Shown here: in pieces, positions 6,301 to 9,300 of the stretch
Layout: every line of letters starts with the position of its first letter
Position numbering within the stretch: position 1 is the stretch's first letter
NCBI GenBank assembly: GCA_903813345.2
Contig: CAIIXF020000009.1
Coordinates: 37,751,759-37,815,758 of the forward strand
From: Owenia fusiformis
Lineage: Eukaryota > Annelida > Polychaeta > Sabellida > Oweniidae
Direction: 5' to 3'
Length of the DNA stretch: 64,000 nucleotides
Translations under genes and position numbers: made by a program
The notes under the pieces: generated by a model
Database searches by the model: none
The model's input: the letters and a program-made list of their open reading frames with translations, nothing else
What the model was told of the DNA's origin: nothing

Positions 6301-9300
6301 AAATTTCATGTATACAGTACATCTCTGTCAATTTTTTAATGTTTTAATTGTAATTTGGTGGAATTGGTCATCTAAAGGTTTGTCTATGAAATCACTTTAA
6401 ATTTATATTTTGCATTTGACTTATTAAAGTATAAAATAAATATAAAATAAAAACAAACTTATATAGCCTATTAAAAAACTCGTAGTAAATTACAATTTTA
6501 ACACAAATAATAGCTCACAATTACACAACAACTACTACCTTAATTATCAATGCATTTTTGTGTTGCTTTAATCATTTTGAACAATCTAAATCACAGATTA
6601 ACAGTTGAATCTACAGTATAGTACATACATAAAACCGGAACATGGTGTGCATATACCTGGAAATGTTCAAATTCAAAGGACGAAAATACTGGCAAAACTA
6701 GACAACAGCAACGCCAAAGCGTGGCAAATCCCATCGACAGCCATGGCTGGCATTTGTACAAATTAAGTATACAGCAAAAATAGCACAAAATATGGCCAAA
6801 TTGTCATCAGAAAGGGTAATATGCTTCGAAGGAGGCAAATATAAAATTTACTTTTTGAGTTATAGCAAAATGGACAAAAAATGGACGGACAGAAGGATGG
6901 ATGGACAGAGCCATTCCCTATATCCCTCCAAACTTCGTTCGATGGGATAATCATTTTGACTAAAATAAGGAGTAGTGGTTTCTAAAGAGAAAAGAACACT
7001 GACTTATGCATGAGCACAATCCCTTTTAACCAATTTTATCAGTATTATGTAACACATAGAAAAACATGTACCTAGAATATCTCTTTGGATAGTACGGCCA
7101 GATGCAAATTCTCTACGTCTAGTTTTACGGTGCACTTGGGAAGGTTTTAACTTGGTGACAAGTGCACTTTGAGGGTACTGACAGGGAATGAATTCATAAC
7201 CCTGATGTAGGGGTAATAGACTTAGAAACTGTATGCCTGGGGGTCCTTCAACATTCCAACTGTTGAAGTCAAACTTTGGACCCTGGTCCTCTCTGGGCTG
7301 GAAATGTAAAAACATATTTAAAAAAGACTGAAAGCCAATTCTGTTCAACAAATAATATTTTCTCTCAAAATTATGCATTTGTTTTACAACATTTTGCAGA
7401 TTTGCAAATATTGGAGGAAGAGTATAAAGGACCATCAGGCATACAGATTAAAACTTTGGATCAACACTGGGGAATGACTAGAAAGTGAGTAGAAAGTGAA
7501 CCTATGAAGTTTGGAAAAGCACTCTTGCCTATTGGTTTCAAAGAGATTCATGTGAGATTTGAAACAATGACAGACAAACACACATAAATCATGCCACATC
7601 TGGTCTCATTAGAATTTCTGAAAATAGGCAATTATATATTGAGTATGGAAACTGTGACAGTTGGAAATTCCTCAAAAGAAGAGGAATTTTTGGTGAAAAC
7701 AACAAGAGACAATCTCCTGTTCATCAATCTCCTGCTATTGATGAAACCCTTGCACATTCAAAGCTCACAGATACATGTAAATCATACACTTTTGCCATGT
7801 ACATGTACATGTACCTTCACTTACCAATCACACCTGGATATATTGGATTGTACACTTTACTTCGAGCGCTAGCTCTGTTCAATTGTACATTCCCTGATCT
7901 TGGTAACTTATTGTGATGATCTAATTGAAGATATGGTAAGGAATTGAAGCCATGACTTATTGGAAGAATATTTAATAATTGTATGCCTGATAGTTCTTCA
8001 TACTTTCCGAGATCAGTAGTTGTCTGGTGATCACTTTTAGTTCGCATTGAGCTGTATTTCTACAAAAACAAGAGTTAAAAACATGTTTCATGATTTCAAA
8101 GACTTATATGAATTTAGGTTAACAATGTGTGTCAGTGGTCAATAGGTATTTTATAAAGGTCAGAGGTCATTTCAAGGTCAATGGTCAATGGTCTCGTATC
8201 ATGTCTCGTATCTGACCATGCGTTTCCCATCAGATATGATAATGGATATGTACAACTACTTGTGTATTGAAATCTTTGGGCTGAAAAATGATATGAGTAA
8301 TTGACAGAAAACTGAATTTTATTTAAATAAGCACTAATCCAGGTTGTTTTCAACCGCAAGATTTCGTACAGTCGGAGACATTAATCAACCTCAACAATCA
8401 AAAGTTGTCACAATGAGCTAAATTCTAAGTTTCATGTCTCAAACTATCCCAAGCGGTAGAAAAATTCACTCTAAGTAGCACAATAAATGAATCCAAAGCT
8501 TCATACCTGCAAATGATGGATAAATTCCTACCGAATGTTTTCATGGATTGCCATGTTTGTGATCCAAGGAGGATTGACTCCCAGAATGCAACATCAGTTA
8601 ACCTTATTTACTCGTGTCAGGTTTCAAAATGGGGGAACGGCATTTTGAAAGCTGGCACATGCCATGTTGAATTCTGGGAGCCAATCCTCCTTGTGGCGTA
8701 ATCAGTCTCCAAAATCACCTCAACATTTGAAGAGTCGGCATCAACATGTGGATATCACTTCAAATTTTTAAGTTCCTATTTGTCATTATAGACACAAGTT
8801 CCACTATATTTGTACGTTCCGGGATGGAGAAAATAGAGCACTCAATTCACTGAGGTAAGAATTTATGACATATGTGACAGAATGTCTTTTTCATAGTGTT
8901 AGTCATTATTTGCTGTTCTGCCATTTTGAAACCTGTCACGAGTAAATAAGGTTAACTGATGTTGCATTCTGGGAGTCAATCATCCTTGGATCACAAACAT
9001 GGCGATTCATGAAAACATTCGTTCGATTTGGTAGAAACTTTTCCATCATTTGCAGGTATGAAGCTTTGGATTCATTTATTGTGCTAGTTAGAGTGAACGG
9101 GAATTATTTTTCTACCGCTTGGGATAATTCTATGAAACTTAGAATTTAGCCCATTGTGACAACTTTTGATTGTTGAGGTTGATAATATCTCCGACTGTAC
9201 TTAATCTTGCGGTTGAAACTTAGAATTTAGCTCATTGTGACAACTTTTGATGGTTGAGGTTTATTTTTGTTCCCCACTTTAGCCTTAGAAATACAGTGGG

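What the first reader, a model, noticed from the sequence alone, without database searches (positions are those of the whole stretch)
7072..8059. Tandem homologous exons in ANKRD54 whose phases force mutually exclusive splicing
Exon 2a (235 bp) and 2b (226 bp) encode related segments ([15 protein letters not shown] versus [15 protein letters not shown]). Both enter in phase 0 and leave in phase 1. Exon 1 ends in phase 0 and exon 3 begins in phase 1, so exactly one of the pair gives a full protein. Including both shifts the frame and reaches TGA after nine codons of 2b; skipping both reaches TAA after four codons of exon 3. I do not know of mutually exclusive exons described for ANKRD54.
Basis: partly seen in the sequence, partly recalled or inferred. 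Interest (0 to 1): 0.85.

Follow-up and report, generated by a model that had tools for sequence, protein, structure and literature searches.

The report
Twin alternative exons in ANKRD54 gene
An animal gene carries two related versions of one exon that look built to be used one at a time, and the stretch between them holds a back-to-front copy of their shared core that could fold onto either one; the twin exons are convincing, the folding switch is a hypothesis.

Summary
On the minus strand lies an ANKRD54-type gene (9970-3362) with two candidates for exon 2: 2a (8059-7825) and 2b (7297-7072). Both have GT-AG sites, enter in phase 0 and leave in phase 1. Either gives a full protein (299 or 296 aa); both or neither gives an early stop. 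They are related beyond chance, but only over a core of about 110 nt. Two cautions: phases do not force exclusive splicing, and another AG 7 nt inside 2b (exon start 7290) would let both be included in frame (372 aa).

In the pre-mRNA it can pair with 2a (24 of 25 positions, wobble included) or 2b (20 of 23), not both, like the docking element of known mutually exclusive exons, except that the partner sites are coding. Inverted copies are common in this window, so function is unproven. No related genome or RNA data were available. Verdict: probable new mutually exclusive pair (about 0.72); RNA switch possible (about 0.28).

The parts
9890..9970 (-). ANKRD54 exon 1, coding part, 81 nt from the first ATG of its frame, ends in phase 0 (donor CTG|GTAATA)
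7825..8059 (-). Exon 2a, 235 nt, phase 0 in, phase 1 out; donor TTG|GTAAGT (7 of 9 to consensus). Scores as coding sequence: 0 of 550 intron windows as high
7834..8059 (-). Exon 2a, short form, 226 nt, same phase; second donor CAG|GTGTGA nine nt upstream; gives the same length as 2b
7072..7297 (-). Exon 2b, 226 nt, phase 0 in, phase 1 out; donor TAG|GTACAT (6 of 9); encodes the basic cluster HRKTRRR, absent from 2a
7072..7290 (-). Exon 2b from an alternative acceptor (third AG of CAGCCCAGAG), 219 nt; the form with which 2a and 2b could both be included in frame
7421..7449 (+). Antisense copy of the exon core inside the 2a-2b intron (AS element; candidate docking site). In the minus-strand pre-mRNA it is complementary to the cores of 2a and 2b
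7980..8004 (-). Core of exon 2a complementary to the AS element (22 Watson-Crick + 2 G-U of 25); contains GAAGAA, an enhancer-like hexamer by recall
7226..7248 (-). Core of exon 2b complementary to the AS element (20 Watson-Crick of 23); overlaps the purine-rich stretch GAAGGAC
7298..7824 (-). Intron between 2a and 2b, 527 nt, GT-AG
6206..6253 (-). Exon 3, 48 nt, entered in phase 1; shared by both isoforms
5669..5767 (-). Exon 4, 99 nt (ankyrin repeats)
5225..5344 (-). Exon 5, 120 nt (ankyrin repeats)
3939..4072 (-). Exon 6, 134 nt
3362..3544 (-). Exon 7, 183 nt, to the TAG stop

Best explanation
Exons 2a and 2b are an old tandem duplication of the second exon of an ANKRD54 gene, now used as alternatives, one per productive mRNA. 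Shown here: the anatomy, the phases, the homology of the core and the coding character of 2a. Inferred: that both are spliced; that transcripts with both or neither are lost by nonsense-mediated decay or yield a short N-terminal fragment; and that the choice swaps the segment in front of the ankyrin repeats. Both forms keep the short core GIQ[LF]LxxLPxxxG, while only 2b carries a tight basic cluster (HRKTRRR). ANKRD54 is described as having a nuclear localization and a nuclear export signal flanking its ankyrin repeats (PMC5378395, passages), so a likely consequence is a form that enters the nucleus (2b) and one that does so less (2a). Possible selector, about 0.28: the antisense copy of the core in the intervening intron pairs with one exon or the other and hides its core, including its purine-rich stretch, leaving the other exon to be spliced.
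For: Gene model with two full-length products and the two predicted dead ends. Homology 2a/2b: 0 of 2000 protein shuffles, 0 of 1000 DNA shuffles. 2a is open over 78 codons, against 3 of 550 overlapping intron windows open in frame 0, and its codon score exceeds all 550 windows; that of 2b is reached by 1 of 550 (the same introns served as background, which favours the exons). The in-phase donor at 7834 gives 2a exactly the length of 2b. Steric and U12 incompatibility are unlikely: 527-nt intron, U2-type donors. In the Drosophila X-chromosome survey of Pillmann et al. 90 of 16,180 exons (0.56%) that are not mutually exclusive shared length, frame and similarity with a neighbour (PMC3228551, passages); but see the similarity caveat. 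AS element: the 10-mer CAGGCATACA occurs three times in 64 kb, all here; ungapped complementarity reached in 1 of 3000 (2a) and 7 of 3000 (2b) shuffles; of 8 exons against 7 introns only 2a and 2b exceed score 12, both against the antisense of this intron. The minimum-energy fold pairs AS with 2a; forcing AS onto 2b costs 7.3 kcal/mol, leaving AS unpaired 31.2; without the 2a core AS pairs with 2b.
Against: No transcripts and no related genome were available, so use of 2a (or 2b) is untested. With the acceptor at 7290 both exons fit in frame. End-to-end similarity is low: normalised global score 0.05 against the 0.15 default of Pillmann et al.. Neither exon shows detectable similarity to the human N-terminus as I recall it: 1825 of 2000 (2a) and 529 of 2000 (2b) shuffles as high. 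For the AS element: inverted copies of equal strength (score 16 or more) within 762 nt occur at 139 of 2917 random places in this window and 56 of 1226 systematic ones. Exon 2a reaches score 16 in 2 of 470 tiles elsewhere, overlapping tiles at one AT-rich place outside the core; 2b reaches 14 in 0 of 470. Gapped alignment is weaker (14 and 5 of 1000 shuffles). Whole-intron duplex energies are not unusual (111 of 300 for 2a, 15 of 300 for 2b). The longest exon-intron helix, 15 pairs, equals the maximum of 40 shuffles. The full-length fold gives almost no AS:2b pairing (0.0004 expected pairs against 24.1 with 2a).
Confidence: 0.72

Rival explanations
1. One of the two exons is a dead or dying duplicate: the gene always uses the other, and the open frame of the unused one is a leftover.
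For: Low overall similarity of the two exons (20 of 71 aligned residues identical), and no comparative or transcript evidence for either (one search found no relative in viral contigs; no eukaryotic genome collection was at hand).
Against: Both have intact splice signals and matching phases, and both score as coding sequence. With divergence this large, an unconstrained copy should have gained stops or lost sites; a 78-codon stretch open by chance has probability about 0.006 at intron composition, and 53 of 20000 shuffles of 2a are open.
Confidence: 0.13
2. Both exons are included together, at least at times, by splicing 2a to the AG 7 nt inside 2b (exon start 7290): a 372-aa protein with two copies of the core motif, 2a acting as a cassette exon.
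For: 1-2a-2b(7290)-3 is open to the normal stop, 372 aa, or 369 with the short 2a; the tract before that AG has 12 pyrimidines of 17, as for the 7297 site.
Against: It is the third AG of CAGCCCAGAG; by recall the first AG after the tract is usually taken. The 7290 start is unproductive without 2a (stop after 49 codons), so acceptor choice would have to follow 2a inclusion. One frame-restoring AG nearby is no great coincidence.
Confidence: 0.08
3. The exons belong to transcripts with different starts (alternative promoters or first exons), not to internal mutually exclusive splicing; for example a start within 2a (ATG at its fifth codon).
For: 2a holds an in-frame ATG near its start (translation).
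Against: Both have acceptor sites with pyrimidine-rich tracts and accept exon 1 in phase 0; 2b has no Met in its 75 codons.
Confidence: 0.05
4. The antisense element is an ordinary local inverted duplication without function; the exon choice is set by proteins and by decay of wrong products. (Rival to the switch only, not to the exon pair.)
For: Inverted repeats are frequent in this window: 139 of 2917 random places, 56 of 1226 in 14 one-kb bins; intron 1 alone has arms up to 156 nt. Duplex-energy and longest-helix controls are unremarkable.
Against: In the 20-nt core the intronic copy has no private difference (0, against 3 for 2a and 2 for 2b), although a neutral copy should change fastest; this is weak, since (2/3)^5 is about 0.13. 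In the longer alignment it has 8 private differences against 7 and 10, so any constraint is confined to the core.
Confidence: 0.6
5. The exon-intron duplex serves A-to-I RNA editing: the antisense element is an editing complementary sequence that lets ADAR recode the exon. (Rival to the switch only.)
For: The geometry (intronic complement of coding sequence) is that of known editing substrates by recall; the AS:2a duplex has one A-C mismatch (A at 7995 against AS position 7430).
Against: That A has a 5' G, which ADAR disfavours (recalled). No editing data.
Confidence: 0.07

Closest known systems
Tandemly duplicated mutually exclusive exons (Pillmann et al. 2011, PMC3228551, passages and one section; Kondrashov and Koonin, and Letunic et al., seen only as reference entries)
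   Same: Adjacent homologous internal exons, same phases, near-equal length, only one fits the frame at the main splice sites
   Different: Gene in which my searches showed none; similarity restricted to a core and below the usual score threshold; no transcript support
Docking site and selector sequences of insect Dscam, 14-3-3zeta, Mhc (as described in PMC6071210, passages)
   Same: One element complementary to several competing sites, only one pairing at a time
   Different: There the competing elements are described as intronic; here the competing sites are inside the coding exons and the single element is an antisense copy of the exon core, between the two exons
Human ATE1 exons 7a/7b (PMC8052449 and PMC11802352, passages; the original paper is not held)
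   Same: Two mutually exclusive exons; R1 and R4 compete for pairing with R3
   Different: ATE1 elements are described as conserved and intronic, though elements such as R1-R5 are said to overlap splice sites, so they may reach into the exons by a few nt; tested by mutation (recalled). Here one genome, no test, and pairing deep inside the exons
Duplication of one arm of a stem-loop creates competing structures (Ivanov and Pervouchine, PMC6071210, abstract and passages; restated in PMC9013439, passages)
   Same: If the ancestral exon already paired with the antisense element, copying the exon makes two competing partners at once
   Different: Their model duplicates an intronic arm together with the exon; here the duplicated arm would be the exon's own coding sequence

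Membership tests
Mutually exclusive exon pair (criteria of Pillmann et al. 2011) | Similar length (difference up to 20 aa) | tested here: met
   78 (or 75) against 75 codons
Mutually exclusive exon pair (criteria of Pillmann et al. 2011) | Same splice-site pattern and reading frame, no in-frame stop | tested here: met
   GT-AG, phase 0 in and 1 out for both
Mutually exclusive exon pair (criteria of Pillmann et al. 2011) | Normalised global similarity of at least 15% (their default) | tested here: not met
   0.054 with their matrix and gap costs (0.022 for the short 2a), although global similarity beats 2000 of 2000 shuffles. This is an adjustable search threshold, not a definition of the splicing pattern
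Mutually exclusive exon pair | Joint inclusion gives no full product | tested here: inconclusive
   true for the main acceptor 7297 and for 7292, with either 2a donor; not true for an acceptor at 7290
[quoted passage not shown]
   no RNA data
Mutually exclusive exon pair | Conserved as a pair in relatives | not testable with these tools
   no eukaryotic genome collection; viral contigs gave none; no whole genome held for the window
Docking-selector type RNA switch | One element complementary to a site in or beside each exon, pairings exclusive | tested here: met
Docking-selector type RNA switch | Complementarity beyond chance | tested here: inconclusive
   1 and 7 of 3000 shuffles, but 139 of 2917 real places as strong; energy and helix controls unremarkable
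Docking-selector type RNA switch | Elements lie in introns | tested here: not met
   AS is intronic, but both partner sites are coding; so it would work like this class without being a standard member
Docking-selector type RNA switch | Covariation or conservation; effect of mutations on splicing | not testable with these tools
   single genome
ANKRD54 orthologue | Ankyrin repeats plus matching C-terminal region, about 300 aa | tested here: met
   Pfam Ank; local alignment score 452-453 to human ANKRD54 as recalled from memory, (the human sequence was not checked against a database)

The most novel reading that the evidence does not exclude
The intron between two duplicated coding exons carries an antisense copy of the exons' own core, which pairs with either exon but not both and so hides one: a docking-selector switch whose selectors are protein-coding sequence. 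This would mean that the codons of the shared core are held by two demands at once, protein and RNA pairing, and that exclusivity came with the exon duplication itself.
Probability: 0.28. Interest if true: 0.75.

Novelty: new member of a known kind. Interest (0 to 1): 0.5.

Why it matters
If both exons are used, this ANKRD54 makes two proteins that differ just before the ankyrin repeats, in a segment that may decide nuclear entry; ANKRD54 is known for expelling the kinase BTK from the nucleus (PMC5378395, passages). If the antisense element is the selector, it is a minimal two-exon system in which the proposal that exon duplication brings mutually exclusive splicing with it (PMC6071210) could be tested directly, with the competing sites inside the exons.

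Tried and rejected
Steric exclusion by a very short intron: rejected, 527 nt. Minor-spliceosome mixture: rejected, donors GTAAGT and GTACAT do not fit the U12 consensus, which is recalled. Distant branch point of the OGDH kind: no sign; the first AG upstream of the 2b acceptor is at -32 and of 2a at -45, within the range of the other exons (-27 to -54). In-frame inclusion of both through another donor of 2a: of sites with at least 6 of 9 matches between 60 nt into 2a and 150 nt past its end, the one other site without an in-frame stop (7834) keeps the phase; the four downstream carry an in-frame stop. A third sense copy of the exon in introns 1-2a, 2a-2b or 2b-3: none that I accept; 2a against the 2b-3 intron scored 42 with 4 of 300 shuffles as high, but it is a gappy AT-rich alignment without the core.

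Which exon is the older: not decided; neither resembles the recalled human N-terminus beyond chance. Homology of the last 15-30 nt of 2a-short and 2b: not supported (6 to 8 identities); ungapped end-to-end identity, 61 of 226, is at chance, 2108 of 5000 shuffles. Relatives in viral contigs: none. Structure prediction was not tried, since a spliced protein is not a direct translation of the window. Solved structures: 528 matched, 60 shown, which by their names are ankyrin-repeat proteins and designed repeat proteins or fusions. The organism was not identified.

Full report
What is there. The window reads as eukaryotic (spliced genes) and no whole genome is held for it. On its minus strand is a gene with seven coding exons per transcript, one of them in two versions, 9970 to 3362, with all introns of the model GT-AG. 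The ATG is the first in its frame after an upstream stop. The protein has ankyrin repeats (Pfam Ank, E about 1e-23) and aligns, from just before the repeats to near the C-terminus, with human ANKRD54 as I recall it (score 452-453; recalled sequence, not checked). A small-Maf bZIP gene lies head to head at about 10.9-12 kb (bZIP_Maf; its first exon by eye).

The finding checked. Exon 2a is 8059-7825 and exon 2b 7297-7072. Exon 1 ends in phase 0; both alternatives are 1 mod 3 long; exon 3 is entered in phase 1. Using 2a gives 299 aa, using 2b 296 aa, both ending at the same stop. Two details are new. 2a has a second donor, CAG|GTGTGA, nine nt upstream and in the same phase, which gives 226 nt, exactly the length of 2b, and a 296-aa protein. 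And 2b has further AGs at 5 and 7 nt into it; if it starts at 7290, 2a and 2b can both be included in frame (372 aa), while without 2a that start gives a stop after 49 codons. So 'exactly one' holds for the main sites only.

Is it more than chance. Local protein alignment of 2a and 2b scores 50 ([18 protein letters not shown] against [18 protein letters not shown]), with 0 of 2000 shuffles as high. DNA alignment over about 110 nt scores 49, with 0 of 1000 shuffles. Global protein alignment also beats all 2000 shuffles, but with only 20 identities in 71 aligned positions. By the scoring of Pillmann et al. (search-algorithm section read) the normalised score is 0.05, under their default of 0.15. 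The 3' ends of the exons, and the two exons compared end to end without gaps, are at chance. So this is an old, strongly diverged duplication, or one in which mainly the core is constrained.

Is 2a a real exon. It is open over 78 codons; 3 of 550 overlapping intron windows of 235 nt are open in frame 0. Its codon score, trained on 573 codons of exons 3-7 and two other genes of the window, is above all 550 windows; the score of 2b is reached by 1 of 550. The training set is small and the same introns served as background, which favours the exons. Its donor is closer to consensus than that of 2b (7 against 6 of 9). I read this as two working exons, but only transcripts can show it.

What the phases do and do not do. 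Reading frame acts after splicing. It can remove wrong products through decay, as PMC6071210 notes for clusters of mutually exclusive exons (passage), but it cannot choose. The intron is 527 nt and U2-type, so steric or spliceosome incompatibility is unlikely. A selector is needed.

A candidate selector. The repeat search showed that the + strand at 7421-7449, inside this intron, repeats the core of both exons in the opposite sense. In the pre-mRNA it is therefore complementary to both: 22 Watson-Crick and 2 G-U pairs of 25 with 2a (8004-7980), and 20 of 23 with 2b (7248-7226). CAGGCATACA occurs three times in 64 kb, all here, and the 20-mer with up to three mismatches likewise three times. 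Against shuffled introns the ungapped complementarity is reached in 1 of 3000 (2a) and 7 of 3000 (2b). Of 8 exons against 7 introns on both strands, only 2a and 2b exceed score 12, both against the antisense of this intron. The pairings exclude each other. In the fold of 1088 nt the element pairs with 2a; forcing it onto 2b costs 7.3 kcal/mol and leaving it unpaired 31.2; with base pairs limited to 400 nt it pairs with 2b, to 600 nt with 2a, to 200 nt with neither. Prefix folds, a crude stand-in for folding during transcription, pair it with 2a as soon as it is made, in 11 of 11 prefixes; when the 2a core is left out it pairs with 2b in 3 of 3. Exon 2a, with the stronger donor, thus also has the stronger masking partner. 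The covered stretches include or touch purine-rich hexamers (GAAGAA in 2a, GAAGGA and AAGGAC in 2b) of the kind known, by recall, as splicing enhancers.

Against this. Local inverted copies are common here: at 139 of 2917 random places in the window, score 16 or more is reached between a 235-nt stretch and the next 527 nt, and at 56 of 1226 systematic ones. Against 470 tiles elsewhere in the window, 2a reaches 16 in 2 (one AT-rich place, not the core) and 2b reaches 14 in none. Gapped alignment gives 14 and 5 of 1000 shuffles. Total duplex energy of exon and intron is ordinary for 2a (111 of 300) and marginal for 2b (15 of 300). The longest exon-intron helix, 15 pairs, equals the maximum of 40 shuffles, although the overall fold is more stable than with shuffled introns (-262.7 against a mean of -226.8, sd 5.9). 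In the core of 20 nt the intronic copy has no private difference against 3 and 2 in the exons, as a docking site should, but this has a chance probability near 0.13 if the three copies change equally fast, and in the longer alignment it has 8 against 7 and 10. I therefore hold the anatomy as shown and the function as a hypothesis at about 0.28.

Consequence for the protein. Both forms keep the core motif. 2b has 6 basic residues in 12 ([12 protein letters not shown]), 2a at most 3 in 12. ANKRD54 is described as four ankyrin repeats flanked by a nuclear localization and a nuclear export signal (PMC5378395, passages). A swap that adds or removes nuclear entry is a natural but untested reading; the net charge of the two exons is the same (+4), so the difference is clustering only.

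Compared with what is known. Tandem duplicated mutually exclusive exons are a well-known kind; this would be a new member in a gene for which I saw none in the held library (listings only). Competing elements are described as intronic in the papers I looked at (PMC6071210, PMC11802352, PMC8052449; passages), with the note that those of ATE1 overlap splice sites. Two searches aimed at exonic or inverted-copy versions listed 8 papers and 1 paper; of these I looked into two (PMC6071210, PMC11802352) and saw no clear precedent. Absence there is weak evidence, because most subscription papers are not held.

Noticed in passing
window 8340-9870: Intron 1 is packed with nested inverted and direct repeats (the longest inverted arms 156 nt, most over 30 nt at 83-98% complementary), probably several palindromic transposon copies; it lies between exon 1 and exon 2a.
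   Followed up: no
window 10900-11981: Small-Maf bZIP gene (bZIP_Maf, E 2.5e-27) head to head with ANKRD54, about 0.9 kb between the coding starts by eye; from recall MAFF and ANKRD54 are also on the same arm of human chromosome 22, so the linkage may be old.
   Followed up: no
window 309-1100: Exon with ankyrin repeats and a SOCS box (ASB-like gene), beside the ANKRD54 gene.
   Followed up: no
window 41398-46260 and 57968-59251: Long unnamed open frames (556 aa with no Pfam match at 44590-46260); the second region shares a similar DTTS-containing motif by eye, suggesting a repeated mobile element.
   Followed up: no
window 7400-7484, + strand: The antisense element lies in a small exon-like frame on the + strand, with AG before and GTGAGT after it, as if an inverted exon copy had been inserted; 85 nt only, phases differ from 2a/2b (read by eye).
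   Followed up: partly
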